23,986 nucleotides of DNA. Source: a virus. Each line of letters opens with the position of its first letter. Position 1 is the first letter of the stretch. A program made the translations under genes and the position numbers. The notes under the pieces were generated by a model. It saw only the letters and a list, made by a program, of their open reading frames with translations, searched no databases and had not been told where the DNA came from. The DNA lies in IMG/VR virus record IMGVR_UViG_3300031566_000366, positions 1 to 23,986 of that record; one strand, 5' to 3'. This document shows, in pieces, positions 29-20,751 of the stretch.

Positions 29-1924
29 TTATACAAAACCAAGCTGTGGTGTGCCGAGTAGAATGTTATCAGCTGCCTGAACAAAGTAAGGCACAATGTC
101 TACTGCACCTGCAGTGCCTGACAATGTAAGACCTGCGCCACCTGCAGTTTCCCAATCAGTTCCAAGAGATACTGTACGTGCTGCACCGCTATGAATAAAG
201 ATAAACACACCTGACATACCCGCAACTTCTGTTGATGGATTGTTTAGTGTAATGTTACCTGTAAGCGTCCATACAAAACTATTATATACATAAAGGTCTG
301 GTGTAACTGAACCAGTTTTACTTGCAGTTTCAACTTTACCTACAGTATTAGAACCTGCTAATATGTAGCTATCATTAACCTCAAGCATTTCTGCGCCACC
401 AGTTACAACACGCCATTGGTTTGCAGCGTGGAACTGCATATAGGTATCTGTGTCACCTTCTCGATAAATTGTGTCAGCAATGTAGATGTTATCTACTGCG
501 TTAAGATTGCCATTGATGTTAACACCTGTGCTGGTGGTTTCTAACTTCGGCACGTTGTTAAAGTTCAATTCAACTTTGCCATCCGATACACACTGTATCA
601 TCGTTTCGCCAGTGTACTTTTGTAGCGAAATGTTATTGCCTCTAATTAGAAATGTGCCGCTGGCATACGTTTCATCAATATATGCGTTTGCACCATCGTG
701 GTAAATTTGCAGTTTTCCAGAAGAAAAAGATGCTTTGTTGTTATCACCGAAGTTGATGTCACCTGTAACACTGCCGCCAGCTAGGGGTAAGCCACCAAGG
801 TTAGACAAAGCTGTTGACGCACTAGCAACATCAGATAAGTTATTAGCAGATGTGAGTAAGCCAGCCGTAGACACTGCCGCAACTTGCCAAGCCGAACCGT
901 TATAGACTTTCAACTCATTGCTGGTTGTGTTGAAATACAAGTCGCCAGTAGTCAGTGCGTTACCATCATTATCCACCGCTGGGTCTGAAGCAAATGCACC
1001 GAGGTAGGTGTCAGTGAAGTTATCTAATGCAAGTTCAGCCGCCGCTTGTGCCGCTTCTGCCGCAGTCTGCGCGGCTTCGGCATTTGTCTCAGCGGTTTCC
1101 GCATTTGTCTGCGCTGTTTCTGCTAAAGCCTGAGCCGCTTCTGCCGCCGCCTGGGCTGTCTCCGCATCATTGGCGTGGCCTTCTGCCGTAACCGCGCTGG
1201 CCGCCGCATTGGAGGCCTGGGTCGCCGCATATTCAGCATCAACCACTAAATCCCACTTAGCGGAGTCAGCGTTAGAACTGATAGGAGTAGTGCCGGAAGA
1301 TGTATGAGCCGTGTTACAACGATAAACATTGTAGTTGCTGGCGTCTTTCACCAGGTCACGAACCGTATATGATGTAGCCGCCGCCCAGTTTCCACGCCAG
1401 TTACCGATATCCTCACCGACAACCGGATTACCATTGGAGTCAAAAGCCAGAGTCTTGCCAGCCCGTGATGCCTTGGCAGGGAGCGTCATATCAACAACAC
1501 CGCCGTCAGCCACTAGGGCAGGGTCAAAGACTGGTGCCCTCATGCCACGACTACTCTCCTCACTGATCTGTTGGATCATGATGATCTGGCTATCAAGCTG
1601 TTCATTGAGAGACGCGGCTCTTAAATCACCAGCCGTCACAAAGTCAGTTGTCCGCTCAACGTCACGACCACCAACAATAACGATCTGATCATCTGCGTCA
1701 GGAGTTGTGGGGACATTAGTGCCAACCACAATAGTCACACTGCCTGTCCCATTAGCGTTGATTGTCACCGTGTAATCAGTGGTAAGGGTCAACACCTGGG
1801 CATTAAAATAGACGGCCAGGTCAGTCTGGCTAAGTATTTCAAAGGTAAATGCGTAAGGTCCCGTGCCAGCCGATCCACTGAACACTGCCCGTCTAGTTAC
1901 TGCATTGATACTATAATCTGCCAT
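29..1924 (-). CDS. Tail fibre protein with gp17-type N-terminus, carbohydrate-binding-like module and alanine-rich coiled coil
   Basis: This 631-aa protein probably forms the host-recognition fibre. Residues 1-130 resemble the T7 gp17 N-terminal domain that attaches fibres to the tail (motif YTVTINANGTGSVTIV near 51-66). Residues about 176-229 (W-x-G-x-W, then spaced Tyr, Cys-x-x-x-His-Thr-Ser and a final Trp) look like the small aromatic modules of the CBM5/12 carbohydrate-binding type. Residues 254-302 are seven contiguous heptads of pattern A-E-x-A-(Q/E)-x-x, expected to form a trimeric coiled coil. The rest is Gly/Ser/Asn/Thr-rich beta-type fibre sequence, including a LYFNTTSNELKVYNGSAW motif near 329-346. 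No chaperone or depolymerase active site was recognised. The ATG follows a GAGG site. The attachment domain is well supported; receptor binding is inferred. Confidence 0.9.
   Translation of the reverse strand: MADYSINAVTRRAVFSGSAGTGPYAFTFEILSQTDLAVYFNAQVLTLTTDYTVTINANGTGSVTIVVGTNVPTTPDADDQIVIVGGRDVERTTDFVTAGDLRAASLNEQLDSQIIMIQQISEESSRGMRAPVFDPALVADGGVVDMTLPAKASRAGKTLAFDSNGNPVVGEDIGNWRGNWAAATSYTVRDLVKDASNYNVYRCNTAHTSSGTTPISSNADSAKWDLVVDAEYAATQASNAAASAVTAEGHANDAETAQAAAEAAQALAETAQTNAETAETNAEAAQTAAEAAQAAAELALDNFTDTYLGAFASDPAVDNDGNALTTGDLYFNTTSNELKVYNGSAWQVAAVSTAGLLTSANNLSDVASASTALSNLGGLPLAGGSVTGDINFGDNNKASFSSGKLQIYHDGANAYIDETYASGTFLIRGNNISLQKYTGETMIQCVSDGKVELNFNNVPKLETTSTGVNINGNLNAVDNIYIADTIYREGDTDTYMQFHAANQWRVVTGGAEMLEVNDSYILAGSNTVGKVETASKTGSVTPDLYVYNSFVWTLTGNITLNNPSTEVAGMSGVFIFIHSGAARTVSLGTDWETAGGAGLTLSGTAGAVDIVPYFVQAADNILLGTPQLGFV
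1019..1165 (-). repeat. Seven tandem 21-bp coding repeats (heptad coiled coil in the fibre)
   Basis: Seven back-to-back 21-bp units encode heptads with alanine at positions 1 and 4 and Glu or Gln at positions 2 and 5. The DNA copies are imperfect. The repeat lies wholly inside the tail fibre gene and gives the alanine-rich coiled-coil rod; copy number changes here would alter rod length. Confidence 0.85.
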
Positions 1925-1983: not shown

Positions 1984-4458
1984 CTAGCCACCTGTTACGC
2001 CCCATACGTTAGGTGGTCTGTCAGGAGTGAATTGACCTGGCCTCCACCAATACTCTTGGCCGTAATCTTTCATTCTATCTCTCTCTATCCTTCTAAATCG
2101 TCTCCTTGCTTTTGGGTCAGCCATCAAAGTCAACTGATCTAGAATGGCCCTCTCATAAGCCAGGCGCAAATAAAACGCTGATGACCCTGGCAGATTCCGG
2201 CCAAAGAACTGTATGGTCTCACGACCTATATTAGTCTCTTCTCCTTGTAGCCCCTGGACAAGATTGCCAAATGTCAGGCTCAAAAGGTCCTGGGCAAATG
2301 AGGTTCTTGGGCCTGAGATTGTTTCGCCAATGCCGCCGCCAAACTCATTAAGAGACGCATATAAGAAATCACCCATGATGCTAAGACCGCCACTAGCCAG
2401 AAGGGCCTTACCCCAGAACTCCGGTGAGTCCATTGGCAATTCATCACGACCCTTAGATATCTCTCTTAACTGTATTGCCAGGCCAGCCATTAAGGTTGTG
2501 CTTATGAGAAGGTCTGCTCCTATCGAGGCGCGGCTCTTGAGGCTGTTCCTAAACATAGCTGACTGAATGTTCCGGAGAAAAAACGTAACAGGGAAGTTCT
2601 TAAACATAGCTGTTGAACGGGTCATTTCCCCAGCTATGGTGCCAGGCCTAGTCTTTCCGGTCCAAAACACCCTACCCCTGACAGAGTTGTTTGGGACTGC
2701 CAAGTCGGTCATACCCTGGATCATCTCCATCATCTTGAAAGCCAGGTCCCTATCCACTTCCATTACCTCATCTGGTCGCAAGAACGTGGAGCCTTTGTGT
2801 GTATAAGGAGGCACATCCTTTAGCTTGGTCCACATTTCCTCAGTGAACCCGTATCTAGATAAGGTATCTTGCAATTCACCAGGTAGATTGCGCCATGGCT
2901 TTTTAGCATTATCAGCAATGAAGCCCATAAACTCCATGCCAAAGGCCCAACGTCCGGCCTGGGTAAATGGCGATAACAGAGTAACATTAAGAGCAAAGTT
3001 GCTGATATATTCACTAAACTTGTGACCCGTCATCTCGCCAGCATAACGTGACTTACTAAACGCAAACGCTGACCAATGCTCTGCAATAAGACCCATTCTC
3101 ACTGCCTGTTGCTTTGTAGCCTTGTTAGCCGTTAGCATTTGCAATGCGGCTTTAGTCGATGACTTAAATGTAGACATCCCAGCCATGCGCTTGGTAATCC
3201 TGGTGAAGTTAGGGTCAGTCGCAATAGCCAGGATAGATGTAGAGCCAAGGTAAGCTGATGTCAGGATATTCCCCAAAGTAGCCATAGTCCTGGCAACTGG
3301 CCCATTTACCGGAGCATTAGAGGTGCCAGTTATGTAGTCATACATTTCCTCAAACTTGTTAATTGAAGACTCAGCTTTTTCTGATGTTTTGTTATTACCA
3401 GCGGCGGCATCAGCAATCTTAGCGTCTCTCCTGACTTTGTTTTGCATAAACCTGATAGAAGAGTTGGGATTTGGCCCAAGTATTTCAAGAAAAGCCACAT
3501 CACGAGCCATCGTGTCTAGGTGACTAATCATAATAGTAAATGGGTCTCCGCCACCAAAACGCTCTTGATACTCTAGCCACATATCAGCGTTCTTAAATTT
3601 CAAGAAGCGATGATCCTGGCGGCGTCTTGCGAGTGACTTGCCCTGGCCTCCAACCGAACTCTCTTTAATTTTAGAAAAACCATCAGTAGAGATTGTGTCA
3701 TAAATCTCATCAAGAACGTCCTCAAGTTCAAGAGTGGTCATAGGCTTGTTAGTCTTAAAGCTGACCATGTTCTCAACATCTAGCTTATCTCTAATAAATG
3801 TTTTCCACTCAGTTCTGCCAGCTTTTCTTATGGTCAAACCATCATGTGCTGTCGGCATCCCCCAGTCTTTTCTTTTAACGATATCACCACCAGCTTTGTT
3901 AAATGACAGGCGCAAGAACTCTGCGGCTTTTGCCCAGGCTTGAGCCATCAATCTTGCAGACTCATCTCCAGTGTTTTCGCCAAACGCTTCTTTTACCATA
4001 GCCTTGGCCTTTGCTTTAGCTGGTTTGGTTGTGCGACCCAGGACTGCGGACTTACGCAACTCTGTAATGTTCTCATCCATCATAGCTTCAGCCATACCAC
4101 GCAGGGCACGTTGTCTTAACGTCACATTAGAGTAAGTGGCTTGGCCAGTGTAGTCTTGCTCAAGAAGGGCAATCATCCCTTCACCCTTGTTCTTGCCTTT
4201 ATAGCTATCAATGTTTTTAGCCAGGCGAGACTGAGCCGCACGTTGTAATATCATCCGGCGTTTGCTCTGGTACTTCTGATATTTGATAGTGTCAAAAGTA
4301 TCCACTGCCGCTTGTGCATTAGCTTGGGTATCAGACATACTTTTATTGGCTTTATTATCTACCTGGAAACTAATGAACATTTCACTAGCTTCTCGATGTT
4401 GAGCCTGGGTTATTTCGCCATTCTTTAAGGCGCGGTTTATACAGTCTAAAAATTCCAT
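1984..4458 (-). CDS. Large internal virion protein, gp16 C-terminal-like
   Basis: This 824-aa protein is probably part of the internal core and DNA-ejection channel. Its place before the fibre gene and after two other large internal proteins matches T7 gp16. The C-terminal about 130 residues contain a stretch with FGRNLPGSSAFY and a basic block ending in a W-W-x-P-G motif. This resembles the end of large internal virion proteins in many podoviruses. Hydrophobic stretches (around a TLGNILTSAYLG segment and an ISTTLMAGLAI segment) could enter the membrane. No lytic transglycosylase motif was found, so the gp16 enzyme domain is missing or elsewhere. The ATG at 4458 overlaps the previous stop as TAATG and is preferred to an upstream GTG at 4470 that has no separate binding site. 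Confidence 0.75.
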   Translation of the reverse strand: MEFLDCINRALKNGEITQAQHREASEMFISFQVDNKANKSMSDTQANAQAAVDTFDTIKYQKYQSKRRMILQRAAQSRLAKNIDSYKGKNKGEGMIALLEQDYTGQATYSNVTLRQRALRGMAEAMMDENITELRKSAVLGRTTKPAKAKAKAMVKEAFGENTGDESARLMAQAWAKAAEFLRLSFNKAGGDIVKRKDWGMPTAHDGLTIRKAGRTEWKTFIRDKLDVENMVSFKTNKPMTTLELEDVLDEIYDTISTDGFSKIKESSVGGQGKSLARRRQDHRFLKFKNADMWLEYQERFGGGDPFTIMISHLDTMARDVAFLEILGPNPNSSIRFMQNKVRRDAKIADAAAGNNKTSEKAESSINKFEEMYDYITGTSNAPVNGPVARTMATLGNILTSAYLGSTSILAIATDPNFTRITKRMAGMSTFKSSTKAALQMLTANKATKQQAVRMGLIAEHWSAFAFSKSRYAGEMTGHKFSEYISNFALNVTLLSPFTQAGRWAFGMEFMGFIADNAKKPWRNLPGELQDTLSRYGFTEEMWTKLKDVPPYTHKGSTFLRPDEVMEVDRDLAFKMMEMIQGMTDLAVPNNSVRGRVFWTGKTRPGTIAGEMTRSTAMFKNFPVTFFLRNIQSAMFRNSLKSRASIGADLLISTTLMAGLAIQLREISKGRDELPMDSPEFWGKALLASGGLSIMGDFLYASLNEFGGGIGETISGPRTSFAQDLLSLTFGNLVQGLQGEETNIGRETIQFFGRNLPGSSAFYLRLAYERAILDQLTLMADPKARRRFRRIERDRMKDYGQEYWWRPGQFTPDRPPNVWGVTGG

Positions 4459-6620
4459 TAGATTATACACCTCGACAAGCTGTTGACCATAGCCTCATCC
4501 TGGGCAAGTTGCGCCTTTACCTCGGCCCCAGTCATCTCTTTTGAAATAACCTGGTCGCCGTCCACCGTATCTACATATAGAATTTCATCATCTGGCATAT
4601 TTGCAAAGTCAGTTGATTGCTCTACCTGGTCAACAGTTGCGTCAATATCTTTTTCTGTAACACGGGTTTCCTGGGGCAGAGGACGCTCTATATCAGCCTC
4701 AGGGGCATCATCAGGTAGTCTACCCCTCTCAAGGTTTGCAGAGGCCTTGTTGGCCTTTGTATTAGCCTCAATGAATTGTTCTATTTTTGAAGCAACCGCT
4801 TGATCCTCGCCTGGCCTTCTGGGCTGTCCGCCCACTCCTGGACCTTCAAGTCTATCGCGTCTAAGTCGTAAATCGGTGCCTTCGAGGAGACCCCTGGTGT
4901 CTTCGATGACTGGCTTTGGGGCTGTTCTGGTTGTGGCATTGTTGTCGATGTGGGCGTAGCCATCTGCTAATCCTTCTCTCTTTAGATTGTTGTATGTGGA
5001 CATGGGCTTATCACCCACGCTCTTTAGGTAATTGTATGGGACATAACGGCCAGTATTGATAAACCTCTGTATCATGCGGCTCATAGCAACTTCTGCCTTG
5101 ACATCCATACCGACTACATCAATTTCATAGTCATAGTTTCTTAGGCGTTCAATAAGTTTCTTAATGCTTTTATCGTTACCGCCCACCTTTGGTATGACGA
5201 CATTGATACCATCACCTAATGCCTGGGCCAATGCGACTTCAGCTATTTGCGCTGACTCTTCATGAACAGCATTTGCCCCACGACCTTCAGCAAACTCTGG
5301 CATAAACTTCTTGGCCTCATCAGCATCAATGATTGCGGCATTATGTTTTCTGGCAATAGGATTAGCTATGCTTGACTTCCCTGCCGCCGGAGGCCCTAAA
5401 ACAATAATTGCTCTTTTACCAGCAACAATAGGAGTTTGAGGGACAGGCAACTTATCTGCGGTCCAAGCCAATATCTTAGCGTCATCATAGACACGTCTTA
5501 CTATGGATTGCGTACCAGTTATGTTTTGACCAGTAGCCGGATCAACAAAGCTACGGTTTAAGTCCCACTCAACACTGCCATAATTAGGTGCATTGATAGT
5601 TTCCGGTGTTTCTATAAGTGCTTGCTCAACGCTCTGTATGGCAGGGCTGTTAAGAATTGTCGCCTCATCAGCCCCACGATTTAAGTCATCTACTAAGTTG
5701 ACGACATCATCAGAAACACTATCAGGCGCAGAATATTGTAATGGCTGGTCTGTATTGTTAATCATATCAGGGCTTTGCGTCAGTTGATCTAGATCATCAA
5801 AAGCGTGATTAACTACGTCAACTTCTTTGCGCTTTAGATATCCAGCATCTGCTAATACATCTAAGCCCTTTGTTACTTGAGCATTTGTAAAGTGCAGAGC
5901 CTTTGAGCCGCCTGTAAGAACTGGAGGAACCGCCGCACCAAAAGTAAAGCCAGCCCCCACTGCGGTTAAGAAATCAGCATAGGTATAATCCATGCCCAAT
6001 TCATCATACCAGTCTGCGATACCAAGTTGCAAATAAGCCTCTGTCCCTGCACCAAGTAAGCCTTCTTTAAGCATCCTGGCCCCTATACCACCCTTTGCTC
6101 CCTTGCCTCTAAAGAAAAGCATTTGTTCAATAAAGACATCATCTGTCATGGCACCAGCCGTTTGGCCCAGGAAACTACCTAAAACACCCATCCAGGTCTG
6201 ACGCTCTGCCGCATCAGCCGATCTGGTCATTGACTCTCTGGCGTCATCATAGGCTAGTTCATATATTTTTTGCCCACTTAGGTCTGCATACTCCGGATAT
6301 ATATCAGGCCTTTCAGACACATACTCCGCCAGTTTCCCGACATTGGTATACATCTCTTCATCTGTGTAATGAACAGGGGCACCAGTGCCTGGGATATAGG
6401 CAGGGCTTCTGAATATTTTGCCTTCTCGCTCTTCAATAGCCGCAATGATTGGATCAATCTGTTTGTTGAGCAAAAGAACTTTACTATCAACATTCCCAGA
6501 CTGTATTTGTTCGTGCATTTGTATTGCAAAGGCTTCGCCAAAACCAATAGCCTCTCCACCAAATCGTGCAGGGATATCTCCTATTCCGGTATTGTTATAC
6601 TGCTCAAAGAATAAGGTCAT
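4458..6620 (-). CDS. Internal virion protein with an embedded zeta-toxin-like P-loop kinase domain
   Basis: This 720-aa protein lies between two internal virion proteins and overlaps the upstream one by 4 bp (ATGA), so it is probably a virion or ejection protein. Residues 1-300 contain glycine-rich hydrophobic stretches (around MGVLGSFLGQTAG and TAVGAGFTFGAAVPPVL) that could associate with membranes. Residues about 395-560 look like a zeta-toxin kinase: a hydrophobic strand then Walker A GPPAAGKSS (409-417, Lys415), an IIDADE acidic motif (Asp432, Asp434), a VHEES helix (452-456), and a later helix with Arg515 and Arg519 where zeta kinases place phosphate-binding arginines. The C-terminal 140 residues are acidic, Gln-rich and probably disordered. 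Zeta toxins phosphorylate UDP-N-acetylglucosamine; whether this one does is unknown. No epsilon-type antitoxin gene is adjacent. Confidence 0.8.
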   Translation of the reverse strand: MTLFFEQYNNTGIGDIPARFGGEAIGFGEAFAIQMHEQIQSGNVDSKVLLLNKQIDPIIAAIEEREGKIFRSPAYIPGTGAPVHYTDEEMYTNVGKLAEYVSERPDIYPEYADLSGQKIYELAYDDARESMTRSADAAERQTWMGVLGSFLGQTAGAMTDDVFIEQMLFFRGKGAKGGIGARMLKEGLLGAGTEAYLQLGIADWYDELGMDYTYADFLTAVGAGFTFGAAVPPVLTGGSKALHFTNAQVTKGLDVLADAGYLKRKEVDVVNHAFDDLDQLTQSPDMINNTDQPLQYSAPDSVSDDVVNLVDDLNRGADEATILNSPAIQSVEQALIETPETINAPNYGSVEWDLNRSFVDPATGQNITGTQSIVRRVYDDAKILAWTADKLPVPQTPIVAGKRAIIVLGPPAAGKSSIANPIARKHNAAIIDADEAKKFMPEFAEGRGANAVHEESAQIAEVALAQALGDGINVVIPKVGGNDKSIKKLIERLRNYDYEIDVVGMDVKAEVAMSRMIQRFINTGRYVPYNYLKSVGDKPMSTYNNLKREGLADGYAHIDNNATTRTAPKPVIEDTRGLLEGTDLRLRRDRLEGPGVGGQPRRPGEDQAVASKIEQFIEANTKANKASANLERGRLPDDAPEADIERPLPQETRVTEKDIDATVDQVEQSTDFANMPDDEILYVDTVDGDQVISKEMTGAEVKAQLAQDEAMVNSLSRCII
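4941..5438 (-). other. Zeta-toxin-like kinase domain (sub-region of the 720-aa virion protein)
   Basis: This marks residues about 395-560. Motif order matches the zeta family: Walker A with Lys415, the DADE acidic motif 18 residues after the P-loop, the conserved His-Glu-Glu helix, a strand (NVVIPKVGG), and an arginine-bearing helix followed by GRYVP. Canonical zeta proteins often have a D-G-T at the strand after the His-Glu-Glu helix; here it reads P-K-V-G-G, so substrate specificity may differ. Boundaries are estimates. Confidence 0.75.
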
Positions 6621-9232
6621 GGCTTATACCTTTTCAAATCAATGAGGTATGGGAAGCCATCTGGAGCAAACATTGTTTCGGGACTGCTAGGGTGGCGCAA
6701 CTTGTAAATGCCATCTCCAACTGTGATGAGGCGGTATCTGCTAATATCATCTAAGTCAAAAGGTGAGTTATTTAAAGCCCCAACAGGCATCTTATCATAA
6801 GGGAGGAATTCCGCTGTTTCTCTGTCTTGTACAACAGCCACCTTCAAGAAATCTTCTTCTGTGGCAAATTCCATAATATCATCTATGTCATCTTGTGGAA
6901 TATTGTTTGGCAAGATAACCTGGGTGTCATTGTAAGTCACAATGCCGCCGAAACGCTTGCTACCTATTTCCACCATACCAGTCGCGTACTGAATAGCATC
7001 CTCATATAAGTCATCATCAAATGATCCGGAACTACTGCCGCCCATTCCAAGATAGTAATAATCAGCTATTTTCTTGGCATTATCTACAAACTTAGCAACT
7101 CCAGGCGTTTCTGTCAGGCCACCAAATGTAGTTATGTTTTGCTCTCTCATGTCAGTCAGTTCGCCATATGCTCTATCTTCCATGCCATCTTTAATTTTGC
7201 GGCCAACTATCATTCTGTCCATAACTTTCGGACTTGTCTGATCCACCATTAAACCACCCATATGGGCAAGGACAGGAGCCTGTTTGTTAAGGGCATCCAG
7301 AGCCTCTACGGTATCAACTCCAAAGACCTGGTTCACTCTCATGAGATATGCCATTTGTAATTGAGGATCAGCATCAACAATAGCATTGGCCAGTTGTTCA
7401 CCTTCCGAATCGGTCAACAAGCGGCGTTTCGTCCCGTAGTGAGATACAACTGCATTAGCATCCTGTCTGCGCTGTCGGACAACGCCTTGGACTTCAGGAG
7501 ATAAGGGATCAAAGTCTGGGTTAAGAGCCATCATCATAAGGCTCTGATCAAGAGTTATAACACCAGAGCCATTTGCCCAGGATAGTGGGTCCTTATTAAG
7601 GCCCGTTGTCATGGCTGTGAGCCGACCCTCTATAAGATTTATGATTTCATTTTCGGATGCTGTGTACCCGTCTTCCCTGGCCTCGGTGCGGAATTTATTA
7701 AGTTTTGCCTCTAACTCAAGAGCAGTGTCATCTGCCAGGTCATTAAACCTCTGGCTCCGACCAAACATAATTTGATACTCAACATTAAGAGCATCAACCA
7801 ACTCTTCTGGTGCCCCACTTTCTCTAAGGGCTTCTATATCTTGTCCGATTGATTGGAACATTGCTGGGTCAACAGGATTAAAGTCGTCAACAATTTTTTG
7901 GATATTATCAATCTTTTGGCCAATAGCTGTTGCAGATTTACCCCAGGCTGTATTTTGTGCATTAGCCTCAGAGACGGCGGAACTTAGTTTGCTCTTGATA
8001 ATCTTAAAGCGCATCATATCGCTAGGCGTTGCCATCTCTTCTTCTACGATAGCTGACTCTAAACGATCATGCTCTGCTTGAAGTTGGTCAAGATTAAAGT
8101 CTTTGACGTTGCGGAGATAGTCTATATTCTCCTCTGCCATAGTCACGGCTTCTTTAAGTTCAGCAATCCTTCCCTTGTCAGCACCAGCCTCTTCTAAAGC
8201 CGCAATCCTTGAATTGATATCCTTAATAGTTTGCTGACTAGGAATACCAGCGGAACTTACTATATTTAGAACATTGGTTTGAATATCTTGCCCAAGATTA
8301 GATATCTCACCATTGAGAGCAGTCTGTTCTCTTGTTGCGGCAAGTTTGAATTTGTTTGCCAGGGCTTCAGCGTTTGCATCAGGCAGACCTCTAGCAAGCC
8401 CACCCTCATCATCGATACTGTCAGCCAAGTCATCAGCAAACTGCATCTTTTCTTCTATGGTCTCAAGGCGATCATATGAGCCATTTAGTCTAGCTGTATG
8501 TGCCCTGCGCTTTGCTTTTAAGACTTCATTGGCGGCTTCCTCTTCTGAGTACTCCTGACCAATTAGCATCTCATAGATATTGTTTGCGCTTTCATCTATG
8601 TACTTGTCTATATCGCCCAGGGTAGAACGGGCCATATCCTCAATAGCAAAGTTCATATCCTCTAACTGAGACGCACCAACCGCTCTGGCCTTGACCCTTT
8701 CCTTCTTGAGGTAGTCTTCAGAGAAATTAAGATAATGAGCGTTACGTTGATCATCTAGCCGGAGAGTAACATTCTGAGCCGCCTCAGGTGAAAGCATACC
8801 AACAACATCAGAATAACCAACAGTCACGGCGTCCAAGCGATCTGCCAGTTGATCTGGGGTCTCACCCAGCTTCATTGACTCCAGGTACTCTCTGCCCATA
8901 ACAGACTTGGCCTCAACCTGAATTTGTGTGCTAAGGCCCTTAACAGCCGCCTCATAAGCCGCCGCTTCTGGGATATTCAAAGTTGCTGGGTCGCGGCCTT
9001 GTAGGTCAAGGAGAGTGCCACGGGGGTCTTCTGCCCCAGCCATACCACCTCTGATTTGGGCAGTACGTTGTGCATCCTTAAATGCAAAGTCAGCAATCCG
9101 GTTCATAGCATTAGTAAATGTCTCTTGCGTCCGAACTGCCTCACGGCCAGCGGCAAAGTCGATGGATGGGACACCTGATGGGGCAGTCGTCTGAACTGGC
9201 TGATATGTTAGTCTGTCAAATAAATCTGCCAT
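6617..9232 (-). CDS. Large internal virion protein, gp15-like
   Basis: This 871-aa protein occupies the position of T7 gp15, between the gp14-like protein and the gp16-like pair. It is mostly charged alpha-helical sequence with long coiled-coil stretches (around residues 310-480) and no signal peptide or enzyme motif. The N-terminal segment with an IDFAAGREA motif recalls the start of gp15-type proteins. In T7, gp15 and gp16 form the periplasmic tube that carries DNA into the cell. An AGGGGG binding site lies 6 nt upstream of the ATG, and the gene overlaps the next one by 4 bp. Family placement rests on size, composition and order more than on a diagnostic motif. Confidence 0.7.
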   Translation of the reverse strand: MADLFDRLTYQPVQTTAPSGVPSIDFAAGREAVRTQETFTNAMNRIADFAFKDAQRTAQIRGGMAGAEDPRGTLLDLQGRDPATLNIPEAAAYEAAVKGLSTQIQVEAKSVMGREYLESMKLGETPDQLADRLDAVTVGYSDVVGMLSPEAAQNVTLRLDDQRNAHYLNFSEDYLKKERVKARAVGASQLEDMNFAIEDMARSTLGDIDKYIDESANNIYEMLIGQEYSEEEAANEVLKAKRRAHTARLNGSYDRLETIEEKMQFADDLADSIDDEGGLARGLPDANAEALANKFKLAATREQTALNGEISNLGQDIQTNVLNIVSSAGIPSQQTIKDINSRIAALEEAGADKGRIAELKEAVTMAEENIDYLRNVKDFNLDQLQAEHDRLESAIVEEEMATPSDMMRFKIIKSKLSSAVSEANAQNTAWGKSATAIGQKIDNIQKIVDDFNPVDPAMFQSIGQDIEALRESGAPEELVDALNVEYQIMFGRSQRFNDLADDTALELEAKLNKFRTEAREDGYTASENEIINLIEGRLTAMTTGLNKDPLSWANGSGVITLDQSLMMMALNPDFDPLSPEVQGVVRQRRQDANAVVSHYGTKRRLLTDSEGEQLANAIVDADPQLQMAYLMRVNQVFGVDTVEALDALNKQAPVLAHMGGLMVDQTSPKVMDRMIVGRKIKDGMEDRAYGELTDMREQNITTFGGLTETPGVAKFVDNAKKIADYYYLGMGGSSSGSFDDDLYEDAIQYATGMVEIGSKRFGGIVTYNDTQVILPNNIPQDDIDDIMEFATEEDFLKVAVVQDRETAEFLPYDKMPVGALNNSPFDLDDISRYRLITVGDGIYKLRHPSSPETMFAPDGFPYLIDLKRYKP

Positions 9233-9234
9233 TA

Positions 9235-9813
9235 TTAACCCCCTGAGTATCCAAAGTAGCCTGGACTCGAACTATAAGATGGTGCGCTTGCCCCTCCTGT
9301 CGGGACTGGAGATGTTGTTTTGGTAAAGTTAAACGCGTCAGTCTGCGAACCCATGTAAGCCGCCTGACCAAAACTAGATATCATATTAATAAAGCCTTGA
9401 CGCTTCGCCATAGACCCAGCGGCTATATATTGTGCAGATTGCATAGCCCCTGATGCCTCAATGATCTTACCATTTAACTCAGCCATCTGACGGTTTTCTC
9501 TAGTCGTATAGAAGTCAGCAACACCCTTACCCATATTATACATAGCCAGGTTTTGGACAGAGCCGGAAAATGGATCAATGGACCCAGCCGCCGCTCTAGC
9601 GTTTATAGTCGCCATATTACGGGCAACATTCTTGAGAACCTCAACTCCATTACGCATATGATTAATAGCCTCTGCACGGGACCGCAGTGCCTGTGCCCTT
9701 GCCTGTAATTCAGCTTGTCTAGCCTGGGCACCATATAACTTAGCCTGGGCACGACCCATAGTGTATGAGCCTATACCCCCTGCTACTGCCGCCGCTATTG
9801 CTACATATTCCAT
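9235..9813 (-). CDS. Internal virion protein, gp14-like
   Basis: This 192-aa protein starts with a hydrophobic Gly/Ala-rich segment (YVAIAAAVAGGIGSYTMG) followed by a helical, Ala/Gln/Arg-rich stretch and a flexible Gly/Ser/Pro/Tyr-rich tail ending in YSGG. The layout fits T7 gp14, the internal protein that inserts in the outer membrane during ejection. The position right after tail tube B agrees. The ATG at 9813, one nucleotide after the upstream TGA, is chosen over a TTG at 9849, which would add 12 unlikely residues; the binding site is weak (GGGG), so translation is probably coupled to the upstream gene. Confidence 0.75.
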   Translation of the reverse strand: MEYVAIAAAVAGGIGSYTMGRAQAKLYGAQARQAELQARAQALRSRAEAINHMRNGVEVLKNVARNMATINARAAAGSIDPFSGSVQNLAMYNMGKGVADFYTTRENRQMAELNGKIIEASGAMQSAQYIAAGSMAKRQGFINMISSFGQAAYMGSQTDAFNFTKTTSPVPTGGASAPSYSSSPGYFGYSGG

Positions 9814-9814
9814 A

Positions 9815-12019
9815 TCACTGCCCCACTGACACTTTGTAGTCCAAAGCAAGTAACGTCATATCTAACGGGACGCTTTGGGTTATGGTTATCTGGCCCTCTT
9901 TGCTAAAACCAAGGATTGGGCCAACGGTCTTAACGCCTGTATATGGCGTAACTGCGGCATCAAGATTGCCCTCCCCAAATTGCCGGAAAGCTACTTGCTC
10001 ACCATTAACTGTCATAGCCTGTGTCTCAAAGACTTCAGCATTAACCTCAAGGATGCGCTTCTTAAAACCACGCAATGAACCAGACTGTATCTGAGGCTCA
10101 ACTGGCAATGTCTTGATCTCAACATCATATGCCAGACCAACCTCATAGCCAGTCACACTATCACGGTCAAAAGTTACGGTATTGCTTGTGACGGTCTCAT
10201 CCGGTTGGACAATGCCGTCCAGGATAACCTTAACCGTCTCAGTGTCCAGGTGAGCCGCTGAAGCCGTAGAGGCAACACCTGACGCCTGGACTGCGCTATC
10301 TAGGTGAAGTATGCTGTCGAAATACTCCACAAAGTAATAGTCAACACTATCCACTGTGCGTTTGACCACTGCATAAATGGTGTCAACATCTACACCTACG
10401 GCCTCAAACGCACCATCAGTTGTGAACTCAGCCGGAGCCGTAACCTCCTGGGACCGGAGCAATGAGAAGACAATTAGTGAGCCATCATCATCATTGACGA
10501 TCATCAAACGGTCACTCTCATCAGTAGAGGTAGCGCGGCGGATAGCCATGTCCTTCGGCGTCTTAAACAAATGGCCGGATAACATTGACACGTTGCTGGT
10601 GTTGTAAGCCAGTTCTGTATCGGTAAAGGCTAGTTCGTTTAGAGACTTGCCCTTGCGCTGAATGAATAGAGTGCCGGAATCAACCCCGACAATCGGCACG
10701 TTTGACTTTGAGCCATTACGGGTTGCAATCTTCACAATGAAGTTAGATGGTGTGATAGGGTCCAGATTAGCCTGGGGGACATAGAACTCACCGCCAGTCG
10801 TAAATATCTGTAAGTCACGGCCTGAGAAGATGTCTGTTACGCTATTGAGCGTGGAGGTCGAGATTGTCGCCTCCAGAGCCGCATCGTCCAGGCTCTCGCC
10901 TTTGTCAAAGTTGAAGAAGTCATCAACCCTGGATGCCCAGATGGTTGATGGCAGTGACCCAGAGCCAGCAAGCCATAGACGGCCTTCATGGAAAGTTATG
11001 GCCTTAGGCCAGCCCCTGTCATTAGACCAGGCGTCTTCATAGCCATACTCGATTTCCCAGTTTCCAGAAGTAATAGCGTCAGTGTCAAAAAATGAAATAT
11101 CAACTGTTGCTTTGACAACCGTATTACTTACAAATTCAATTATTCTGGCACGGCCAAACCCATTGGTCACATTAATATATTGACCGACACTGTTTGCTCC
11201 AAATGCTTTAATCTCATATCCAGTCGTTGCGTCTGGGGCTGTTGTAAAAGCTGGGGAAACAGTCGCAACTTTCGTTGTAGCATTATAGTCGCTGATATGC
11301 CTATGTTGGCCTGATCCGGTGCCTGAGGTTAAGTGCAAAGACATCCCATTACATTGGTCATCGGAAGTAAAGCTGGTTGCACTTTTTAACGTAATCGTGC
11401 TAGTTGACCCAGCTTGAGCAGTGCCAGTGTCACTGGTGACGCTTGAGGCAGTAACTGTGATATTACCAACCGTGGCTGACGGCGTAATAGTAAATGTTGG
11501 GCTGTTATAGTTTATTGTGTAAGGGTATTGAGGAGTAAAATCAAAAGTAATAGTAGTCTTTGTCCAATCAGCGTTAGTCGCACCTCTTACTAATTTAAGG
11601 GGCACCAGGTCTTTATGAACAAAGATAATGGTGTCGGCTGATTGAGCATAACGCAACTCAGGCAACATAGACGCAGTAATTTCGGATATTGCCAGGTAAT
11701 CGTTACCAGAGGCGTTGATGTTGGTAATTAAAACGCCATCTCTAAAAACATATAGCTTGCCTGGCGTAATGGCAAACATATAGCTATCATCAGTGTTAAA
11801 CTCAAACGGAACTAACCGAACACCATCAGCCGCTCCACTATCCAGGGTCATGATATAGCGCAAGCCTTCGCGCCGCTTGCATCCACCTTGGGGCTGAATG
11901 ATGACGTTCTTAGCCGTCTCTAAGGCTGAGTAATATTGCTTTAGGTCAATCCTGGCGCGGAGTAGCGGATCAATCTCACCGACAGCAAAGTTTGTTTGGA
12001 TAGAAACAAGTCGGCTCAT
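9815..12019 (-). CDS. Tail tubular protein B (gp12-like tail nozzle)
   Basis: This 734-aa protein is the distal tail tube or nozzle. The N-terminus is characteristic of the T7 gp12 family: SIQTNFAVGEIDPLLRAR, then KNVIIQPQGGCKRREGLRY, a motif kept in podovirus nozzle proteins. A WEIEYGYEDAWSNDRGWPKA region followed by FHEGRLWLAGS (mid-protein) is also typical. The gene overlaps tail tube A by 4 bp, so the two are probably translated together, matching their joint place in the virion. The start is fixed by the ATGA overlap. Confidence 0.93.
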   Translation of the reverse strand: MSRLVSIQTNFAVGEIDPLLRARIDLKQYYSALETAKNVIIQPQGGCKRREGLRYIMTLDSGAADGVRLVPFEFNTDDSYMFAITPGKLYVFRDGVLITNINASGNDYLAISEITASMLPELRYAQSADTIIFVHKDLVPLKLVRGATNADWTKTTITFDFTPQYPYTINYNSPTFTITPSATVGNITVTASSVTSDTGTAQAGSTSTITLKSATSFTSDDQCNGMSLHLTSGTGSGQHRHISDYNATTKVATVSPAFTTAPDATTGYEIKAFGANSVGQYINVTNGFGRARIIEFVSNTVVKATVDISFFDTDAITSGNWEIEYGYEDAWSNDRGWPKAITFHEGRLWLAGSGSLPSTIWASRVDDFFNFDKGESLDDAALEATISTSTLNSVTDIFSGRDLQIFTTGGEFYVPQANLDPITPSNFIVKIATRNGSKSNVPIVGVDSGTLFIQRKGKSLNELAFTDTELAYNTSNVSMLSGHLFKTPKDMAIRRATSTDESDRLMIVNDDDGSLIVFSLLRSQEVTAPAEFTTDGAFEAVGVDVDTIYAVVKRTVDSVDYYFVEYFDSILHLDSAVQASGVASTASAAHLDTETVKVILDGIVQPDETVTSNTVTFDRDSVTGYEVGLAYDVEIKTLPVEPQIQSGSLRGFKKRILEVNAEVFETQAMTVNGEQVAFRQFGEGNLDAAVTPYTGVKTVGPILGFSKEGQITITQSVPLDMTLLALDYKVSVGQ

Positions 12020-20091: not shown

Positions 20092-20188
20092 TAAACGCAC
20101 CCTTCCTTAAATGCGCCCACCTCTTCTCAAAGATAGGCCTATGCGGTATCTCAGGTATCTTAAACAACTCCTGTAACCTACCACTCAT
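20057..20188 (-). CDS. Possible micro-ORF of 43 aa
   Basis: An ATG at 20188 opens a 43-codon frame (MSGRLQELFKIPEIPHRP at the start) that bridges the otherwise empty 86 bp between the zinc-ribbon and small terminase genes. It overlaps the upstream gene by 11 bp and the downstream gene by 35 bp. The product is basic and has no recognised family. The binding site is weak (ACGAAG), so it may not be translated except through coupling. Confidence 0.35.
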   Translation of the reverse strand: MSGRLQELFKIPEIPHRPIFEKRWAHLRKGAFNVKKTDSKRDA

Positions 20189-20468
20189 CTTCGTCAAACT
20201 TGACTTTCCCACTAAACATCGCCTCCTCTAACTCATCATCGCTCATATCATCAAAATCAACAATCACTATATCCGGCTTCTTAACCTTAGGCCTGGGCGG
20301 TGCCTTGAAAGCCACAACCTTCTTCGGCAGTTCAGCCTGGGGCATAACCACCTCTAACGTAGTGTACTTATGTCCACAAGACTTACACTGCCTCCGCCGC
20401 CGGATTGTATTCTCAAATGGCCTTGAGTCATAAACATCACTTTTGCTTCTGCACACTGGACAAAGCAT
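20178..20468 (-). CDS. Zinc-ribbon protein resembling the NrdR N-terminal domain
   Basis: This 96-aa protein starts with MLCPVC, has Cys3, Cys6, Cys28 and Cys31 as a four-cysteine zinc site, and carries YDSRPFENTIRRRRQCKSCG and YTTLE motifs that closely match the zinc-ribbon of NrdR, the repressor of ribonucleotide reductase genes. The NrdR ATP-cone domain is absent; a Pro/Lys linker and a very acidic C-terminus replace it. It may bind DNA or act in transcription, but it cannot sense nucleotides as NrdR does. The ATG at 20468 has AGGAGG 6 nt upstream, which decides the start. It overlaps the previous gene by 32 bp. Confidence 0.8.
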   Translation of the reverse strand: MLCPVCRSKSDVYDSRPFENTIRRRRQCKSCGHKYTTLEVVMPQAELPKKVVAFKAPPRPKVKKPDIVIVDFDDMSDDELEEAMFSGKVKFDEDEW

Positions 20469-20751
20469 TGGCAACCTCCTTCTCCATATCCGAAATCCCA
20501 CGGCCTATGCCGCCATACCCAATAATATCAGCCCAGGAGTCATCATGCGTAGGCTCATGGATTAAACGGGCCAGCTTCAACGCCACCATGCACATAACCA
20601 CCTCATTCGGGCTAACATCCTTCTGCAACAACACCGACCACAACTGAGCAACAGCTACATGGTTGGCGTATGGCGACCCATAGTTCATATTCCGCTCCCT
20701 GATGATTGCGGCTACCGACTCAATGGCGTCTGTGTATTTATCAATGCTCAT
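20437..20751 (-). CDS. DUF6378-like phage protein
   Basis: This 104-aa protein matches the phage DUF6378 pattern: an R-N-x-N-Y-G-S-P segment, NHVAVAQLWSVLL, a helix VVMCMVALKLARL and a final HDDSWADIIGYGGIG. Function is unknown, although the fold is suspected to relate to nucleotide-processing helical proteins because of the acidic DDSWAD motif. The ATG at 20751 has AGGAG 7 nt upstream and is preferred to a GTG at 20790 inside the leader. It is the first gene after a 156-bp gap. Confidence 0.8.
   Translation of the reverse strand: MSIDKYTDAIESVAAIIRERNMNYGSPYANHVAVAQLWSVLLQKDVSPNEVVMCMVALKLARLIHEPTHDDSWADIIGYGGIGRGISDMEKEVANALSSVQKQK

What the first reader, a model, noticed from the sequence alone, without database searches (positions are those of the whole stretch)
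4458..6620. Zeta-toxin-like kinase domain inside an internal virion protein
The sequence shows a P-loop (GPPAAGKSS), IIDADE, VHEES and an arginine helix in zeta-toxin order at residues about 395-560 of a 720-aa protein lying between gp15-like and gp16-like genes. Zeta proteins are known as kinases that poison cells by phosphorylating UDP-N-acetylglucosamine. T7 internal virion proteins are known to be ejected into the cell. Inference: the phage may inject a kinase with its DNA, perhaps to stall wall synthesis, exclude rivals or modify a host target. No adjacent antitoxin is seen. I do not know of a description of this arrangement.
Basis: partly seen in the sequence, partly recalled or inferred. 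Interest (0 to 1): 0.88.

Follow-up and report, generated by a model that had tools for sequence, protein, structure and literature searches.

The report
Swappable enzyme cargo in phage injection protein
A marine virus of bacteria appears to carry, inside one of the proteins it shoots into the cell together with its DNA, a kinase related to bacterial "zeta" toxins, and in sister viruses the same slot holds a different enzyme or none, so the protein looks like a delivery vehicle with exchangeable cargo.

Summary
ORF 4458-6620 (-), 720 aa, contains a real zeta-superfamily kinase at residues 396-585 (Pfam Zeta_toxin E=3.3e-20; a pLDDT 93.6 model whose best PDB matches are the zeta and PezT toxins). 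The phosphotransfer residues K46/D67/K70/R158/R171 are all present (K415, D434, K437, R519, R525) and nearly invariant in 55 non-redundant phage homologues. Most residues by which zeta toxin grips UDP-GlcNAc are not; the key T118 is V479. The proposed wall-synthesis poisoning is therefore unsupported: kinase yes, substrate unknown.

The gene is in the slot of epsilon15 gp16, an ejection protein, between gp15- and gp17-like genes. In relatives the first ~285 and last ~100 residues are conserved while the middle is exchanged. Of 60 non-redundant slot proteins, 29 carry zeta, 12 a Tas1-like (p)ppApp/alarmone-synthetase domain, 19 neither, none both. Sisters L014 and L048 are 87-88% identical on both flanks but carry zeta versus Tas1-like cargo.

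Zeta kinases in injected phage "polyvalent proteins" were predicted in 2017 (fused to MuF), so this is a new variant of a known kind. The exchangeable zeta/Tas1 slot in podovirus ejection proteins is the new part. Ejection and enzyme activity are inferred, not shown.

The parts
4458..6620 (-). Slot gene: 720-aa internal virion (ejection-type) protein with zeta-kinase cargo
   Evidence: start ATG overlaps the stop of the gp15-like gene, and its TAA overlaps an ATG of the gp17-like gene
5766..6620 (-). N-terminal module, residues 1-285, all-helical, glycine-rich, shared by zeta, Tas1-like and cargo-less slot proteins
   Evidence: weak match of residues 126-289 to the T7 gp16 family phrog_342, E=5.6e-4
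5436..5660 (-). Pre-kinase extension, residues 321-395, conserved with the kinase in unrelated carriers
4866..5435 (-). Zeta-superfamily kinase domain, residues 396-585
5370..5396 (-). Walker A GPPAAGKSS, residues 409-417 (K415 = zeta K46)
   Evidence: K in 55/55 homologues
5316..5333 (-). IIDADE, residues 430-435 (D434 = catalytic base D67; K437 = K70 lies just beyond)
   Evidence: D432, D434 and K437 in 55/55 homologues
5253..5267 (-). VHEES, residues 452-456
   Evidence: H453 and S456 in 55/55, E455 in 53/55 homologues
5046..5078 (-). Arginine helix R515, R519 (= R158), R525 (= R171)
   Evidence: 54, 55 and 54 of 55 homologues
4461..4793 (-). C-terminal tail, residues about 610-720, conserved whatever the cargo; C718 nearly invariant
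6617..9232 (-). gp15-like internal virion protein (phrog_992)
9235..9849 (-). gp14-like internal virion protein (phrog_418)
1984..4470 (-). gp17-like virion structural protein (phrog_684), used as the neighbour marker

Best explanation
The protein is a modular ejection protein in the gp16 slot of an epsilon15-order podovirus. The first ~285 residues and the last ~100 residues are the virion/ejection part. Between them sits an exchangeable ~290-residue cassette, here a catalytically competent zeta-superfamily kinase. Proposed mechanism: made late, packed in the head with gp14/gp15/gp17-like proteins, ejected ahead of or with the DNA, and reaching the ATP-containing cytoplasm, where the kinase phosphorylates a small host metabolite, probably a nucleotide-like molecule that is not necessarily UDP-GlcNAc, and so tilts host metabolism or nucleotide-based defence in the first minutes of infection. 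Sister phages deliver a Tas1-like alarmone synthetase or no enzyme from the same slot. Shown here: kinase fold and catalytic residues, the slot, conservation of the ends, cassette exchange. Inferred: virion location, ejection, activity, substrate and benefit.
For: Kinase; dN/dS of the kinase 0.05-0.24 in five pairs. Slot and operon. Cargo independent of vehicle: L017, L052 and L054 keep both ends without cargo; L014 and L048 are 87.5% and 88% identical in the 331-residue N-part and 109-residue C-part, with neighbouring genes 72-87% identical, but carry zeta versus a Tas1-like domain (Tas1 6ox6 E=2.6e-19; swap). 0 of 60 slot proteins carry both, Fisher p=1.4e-4; in the subset found by the neighbour gene alone 10 zeta, 12 Tas1-like, 18 neither of 40, p=0.019. 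On the gp17-like tree the cargo label needs 15 changes, at least 10 for zeta on supported branches. Virion precedent: P-SS2 ORF030 = MuF + zeta, 96.5 peptides on average in purified virions. Polyvalent partner domains (ParB-like, ART-PolyVal, LPD38, MuF, Tas1/RelA) occur in other carriers. UDP-GlcNAc residues lost; precedent of a zeta-fold kinase that does not use UDP-GlcNAc: AvrRxo1.
Against: No virion proteomics for this lineage; the N-terminal module has no match in cultured phages or the PDB and only a weak one to the T7 gp16 family; phiV10 gp19 (the epsilon15-type slot protein) shares position and no significant sequence. Ejection of an enzyme through the tail is assumed. P-SS2 peptides may come from other parts of a 1,500-residue protein. 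Mutual exclusion is counted on related sequences, so the p values overstate independence.
Confidence: 0.62

Rival explanations
1. One reading: an injected UDP-GlcNAc kinase that blocks peptidoglycan synthesis, to kill, to soften the wall for DNA entry, or to exclude rivals.
For: Closest solved relatives are UDP-GlcNAc kinases zeta and PezT; Iyer et al. proposed wall weakening for MuF-zeta proteins; E100 is kept as E461 here and as E or D in 32 of 55.
Against: T118, R120, T121 and T128 are V, G, N and L in the window; V in 45 of 55 at T118. PezT with V at that place is non-toxic. Zeta-type kinases also occur in viruses of haloarchaea, which have no murein (general knowledge).
Confidence: 0.12
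2. An injected polynucleotide kinase that repairs host-cleaved tRNA or nicked phage DNA ends on entry.
For: Bacterial Pnkp is the second-best sequence relative (4xrp E=1.2e-6); phrog_505 polynucleotide kinase E=1.2e-10; PNK folds rank after zeta and AvrRxo1.
Against: Zeta models score far better (3.3e-20); the zeta-type lysine K437 (K70) is invariant in 55/55 where the aligned Pnkp1 has an arginine; no phosphatase or ligase partner domain detected.
Confidence: 0.1
3. The kinase acts before packaging, in the producing cell, or is a purely structural insertion; it is not delivered.
For: Late structural operon; many slot proteins have no enzyme; no antitoxin protects the producing cell.
Against: Catalytic residues invariant and purifying selection argue against a structural-only role; exchange for another nucleotide-active enzyme in the same slot argues for delivery by the vehicle.
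Confidence: 0.12

Closest known systems
Polyvalent proteins (Iyer et al. 2017, PMC5512222), MuF-zeta type
   Same: Multidomain phage proteins thought to be injected with DNA; zeta-toxin-like kinase and RelA/SpoT domains named among their parts; same partner domains (ParB-like, ART-PolyVal, LPD38, MuF) in other carriers found here
   Different: Vehicle here is a podovirus ejection protein in the epsilon15 gp16 slot, without MuF and without a metallopeptidase; a single cassette is exchanged between fixed ends; that text does not mention internal virion proteins or gp16
Zeta/PezT toxins of toxin-antitoxin modules (1gvn, 3q8x, 2p5t)
   Same: Fold, Walker A, D67, K70, R158, R171
   Different: No epsilon/PezA antitoxin; most UDP-GlcNAc contacts replaced; domain inside a large virion-type protein
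AvrRxo1 (zeta-fold kinase of a plant pathogen)
   Same: Catalytic residues kept and UDP-GlcNAc contacts lost; next best fold after zeta/PezT
   Different: Different residues at the substrate site and a different delivery route; nothing shows a shared substrate
Epsilon15/phiV10 gp16 and T7 gp16 ejection proteins
   Same: Gene position between gp15-like and gp17-like (or end of the gp14-15-16 operon); variable size; domain swapping already noted for lysozyme domains (PMC8954989)
   Different: Little or no sequence similarity; T7 gp16 has an N-terminal transglycosylase, this one a kinase in the C-terminal half
Tas1 (p)ppApp synthetase, a type VI secretion effector (6ox6)
   Same: Closest solved relative of the alternative cargo in the same slot of sister phages
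   Different: Found in relatives (for example L048), not in the window

Membership tests
Zeta toxin family (PF06414) | Significant match to the family profile | tested here: met
   E=3.3e-20, above the curated cutoff
Zeta toxin family (PF06414) | Zeta/PezT fold | tested here: met
   pLDDT 93.6 model; first eight PDB matches are zeta/PezT
Zeta toxin family (PF06414) | Phosphotransfer residues K46, D67, K70, R158, R171 | tested here: met
   K415, D434, K437, R519, R525
UDP-GlcNAc kinases of the zeta/PezT type | UDP-GlcNAc-binding residues E100, T118, R120, T121, T128 | tested here: not met
   E461 kept; V479, G481, N482, L489 differ (residues from PMC3062530 and PMC4938570)
Epsilon/zeta toxin-antitoxin module | Adjacent antitoxin gene | tested here: not met
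   Neighbours are virion genes; none of ten small window ORFs matches an antitoxin
Epsilon/zeta toxin-antitoxin module | Toxicity dependent on kinase activity | not testable with these tools
   Needs expression and mutants
Polyvalent proteins (Iyer et al. 2017) | Enzymatic domains of conflict systems joined to virion-associated parts in one phage polypeptide | tested here: met
   Kinase plus ejection-type N and C parts; relatives add ParB-like and Tas1-like domains
Polyvalent proteins (Iyer et al. 2017) | Metallopeptidase (zincin) domain, the common hub | tested here: not met
   No peptidase match in the protein; present in only about 36% of the class according to the paper, so not required
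Podovirus gp16-type ejection proteins | Gene position in the gp14-gp15-gp16(-gp17) operon | tested here: met
Podovirus gp16-type ejection proteins | Sequence similarity to characterised members | tested here: inconclusive
   phrog_342 E=5.6e-4 for residues 126-289; no significant match to T7 gp16 or phiV10 gp19 directly
Podovirus gp16-type ejection proteins | Present in the virion and ejected into the cell | not testable with these tools
   Needs virion proteomics and infection assays

The most novel reading that the evidence does not exclude
A lineage of uncultured podoviruses uses its gp16-slot ejection protein as a standardised injector in which one nucleotide-active enzyme at a time, a zeta-fold kinase with a new substrate or a Tas1-like (p)ppApp/alarmone synthetase, is loaded as exchangeable cargo and delivered into the host at DNA entry, the choice tracking host defences.
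Probability: 0.35. Interest if true: 0.85.

Novelty: new variant of a known kind. Interest (0 to 1): 0.64.

Why it matters
Injected phage enzymes are known in a few cases, but what they do in the first minutes of infection is mostly unstudied. A fixed vehicle with alternative enzymes in one slot turns this into a testable comparison: same vehicle, different cargo. It would show that short-tailed phages, like type VI secretion and polymorphic toxins, deliver nucleotide-attacking enzymes into bacteria, would offer a possible protein-delivery part, and would point to a zeta-fold kinase with a substrate other than UDP-GlcNAc.

Tried and rejected
Direct search of viral contigs with the single protein found nothing, because six short patterns were too strict; the neighbour gene gp17-like and then an alignment of slot proteins worked. 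phmmer of the full protein against PDB gave nothing; the profile did. The full-length model was poor (pLDDT 65) although its top folds were already zeta; the kinase region with 36 homologues gave pLDDT 93.6. The N-terminal module and the ParB-like domain have no significant PDB match. Attempts to join the N-terminal module to T7 gp16 or phiV10 gp19 by profile comparison failed or were marginal. The genome collection gave two partial matches in alphaproteobacterial metagenome bins, too weak to name a host. Searches for papers describing zeta toxin with internal virion or ejection proteins found none in the open library; Tas1 with ppApp, phage and virion, none. Rejected: an orphan toxin-antitoxin module (no antitoxin, operon of virion genes); assembly artefact (many independent contigs with the same architecture); the conserved cysteine near the C-terminus as a mere by-product of the overlapping start codon was considered and not settled.

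Full report
WHAT IS THERE. The window is a complete 23,986-bp IMG/VR viral record with a podovirus gene order on the minus strand: terminase, portal, major capsid protein, tail tubular A and B, gp14-like, gp15-like, the slot gene, gp17-like, tail fibre. The slot gene, 4458-6620 (-), encodes 720 residues. Pfam assigns residues 403-560 to Zeta_toxin with E=3.3e-20.

IS IT A ZETA KINASE? Yes by sequence and fold. A profile of 11 phage homologues finds zeta toxin (E=2.3e-12), bacterial Pnkp (1.2e-6) and PezT (2.2e-5) among PDB sequences. A model of residues 321-590 made with 36 homologues has mean pLDDT 93.6, and its first eight PDB matches are zeta or PezT chains, followed by AvrRxo1 and polynucleotide kinases. 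Mapped on zeta toxin, K46, D65, D67, K70, R158 and R171 correspond to K415, D432, D434, K437, R519 and R525, identical in 54 or 55 of 55 non-redundant phage homologues. The kinase is under purifying selection (dN/dS 0.05-0.24 in five pairs) and in four of five pairs is as conserved as or more conserved at protein level than the N-terminal part.

IS IT A UDP-GlcNAc KINASE? Probably not. In zeta toxin UDP-GlcNAc is bound by E100, T118, R120 and T128, with T121 close by (PMC3062530; PMC4938570). Here the equivalents are E461, V479, G481, L489 and N482. Valine is the commonest residue at the T118 position (45 of 55), and a threonine-to-valine change there makes PezT non-toxic. AvrRxo1 shows the same pattern, catalytic residues kept and sugar-nucleotide contacts lost, and does not phosphorylate UDP-GlcNAc. 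Related kinases also occur in viruses of haloarchaea, hosts without murein (general knowledge). The substrate is open.

WHAT IS THE VEHICLE? In phiV10, a relative of epsilon15, the order is gp15-like (phrog_992), a 600-residue protein corresponding to epsilon15 gp16, then the gp17-like phrog_684 protein. The window protein occupies that middle slot. Podovirus internal virion proteins of this operon are ejection proteins (review PMC8954989). The N-terminal 285 residues are helical and glycine-rich and match the T7 gp16 family phrog_342 weakly (E=5.6e-4); other slot proteins match it better (best 1.4e-22). Direct comparison with T7 gp16 and phiV10 gp19 is not significant, so assignment rests mainly on position. 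No cultured phage has a match to this N-terminal module.

A CARGO SLOT. The gp17-like neighbour gene was used to collect relatives without regard to cargo, and an alignment of slot proteins to collect more. Profiles built here for the N-terminal module, a ParB-like middle domain with an ADGHQRL motif, the zeta kinase, the alternative cargo and the C-terminal tail were run on 60 non-redundant complete slot proteins. 29 carry zeta, 12 carry the alternative cargo, 19 neither, and none both. The alternative cargo's best solved relative is Tas1 (E=2.6e-19), a type VI secretion toxin that makes (p)ppApp, followed by RelA. In the cargo-blind subset of 40 the counts are 10, 12 and 18. Fisher tests give p=1.4e-4 for all and 0.019 for the blind subset, but related sequences are not independent, so the pair L014/L048 is the stronger evidence: the first 331 residues are 87.5% identical, the last 109 are 88% identical, the flanking genes are 72-87% identical, and the stretch between is a zeta kinase in one and a Tas1-like domain in the other. 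On a tree of the gp17-like gene the cargo label needs 15 changes, with at least 10 changes for zeta forced by well supported branches. L017, L052 and L054 have both ends and nothing recognisable between, so the cargo is dispensable for the vehicle.

OTHER CARRIERS. The same kinase type, with its ~75-residue leader, lies in unrelated carriers: 380-660-residue proteins, and a 3,293-residue protein with ART-PolyVal and LPD38 domains. Cyanophage P-SS2 ORF030 is a MuF plus zeta protein and was one of the most strongly detected virion proteins by mass spectrometry, 96.5 peptides on average (PMC2784084). The authors called it a capsid protein and did not mention the kinase; which part of the 1,500 residues gave the peptides is not stated in the text read.

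WHAT IS KNOWN. Iyer et al. 2017 (PMC5512222) described polyvalent proteins, injected multidomain proteins of phages and plasmids, and named zeta-toxin-like kinases fused to MuF in phages and RelA/SpoT domains among their parts. The general idea is therefore known. I found no description of a zeta kinase in a podovirus ejection protein, nor of a zeta/Tas1 exchange in one slot, in the open library; that library is incomplete.

MECHANISM. Most likely the protein is packed in the head, ejected at infection, and its kinase reaches the cytoplasm where ATP is available, phosphorylating a nucleotide-like metabolite. That the alternative cargo is a nucleotide-attacking enzyme supports a target in nucleotide metabolism or nucleotide-based defence. 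Kinase fold, residues, slot and exchange are shown; virion location, ejection, activity, substrate and benefit are inferred.

VERDICT. Real, correctly observed, partly correctly interpreted. New variant of a known kind; interest 0.64.

Noticed in passing
L002:13690-18186 (cyanophage P-SS2 ORF030): MuF plus zeta kinase protein that was detected in purified virions with 96.5 peptides on average but published as a capsid protein without mention of the kinase.
   Followed up: partly
L048:6749-9001, residues 377-600, and L026, L035, L047, L069: Tas1/RelA-like synthetase domain as alternative cargo in the same slot; catalytic-type motif residues conserved.
   Followed up: partly
L051:7056-9010: Slot gene is short and followed by a separate 271-aa PD-(D/E)XK nuclease-like ORF before the gp17-like gene.
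   Followed up: no
L059:5528-9001, residues 989-1046: GNAT acetyltransferase domain at the cargo position of a slot protein.
   Followed up: no
L033, L035, L045, L047, L055 (middle of slot protein): A ~340-residue ParB-like domain with ADGHQRL motif, also present in the 3,293-aa protein of L223 and matching the C-terminal extension of a large portal family (phrog_21).
   Followed up: partly
L248:8545-12423 (halovirus HCTV-5 gene 114): Zeta plus ParB-domain protein encoded among portal, ADP-ribosyltransferase, MuF and capsid genes of an archaeal virus.
   Followed up: partly
BFVD entry A0A6J5LTH6: A 1,134-aa uncultured phage protein labelled anti-CBASS Acb1 is among the closest viral folds to the kinase, hinting at a counter-defence partnership.
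   Followed up: no
window 4461-4793: Nearly invariant cysteine three residues from the C-terminus across slot proteins, including distant ones; role unknown, partly overlapping the start of the next gene.
   Followed up: no
window 20178-20501: Small protein with an NrdR-like zinc ribbon (Pfam E=1.6e-13).
   Followed up: no
window 29-1924: Tail-fibre-like protein with a weak carbohydrate-binding CBM_5_12 match (E=0.0047).
   Followed up: no
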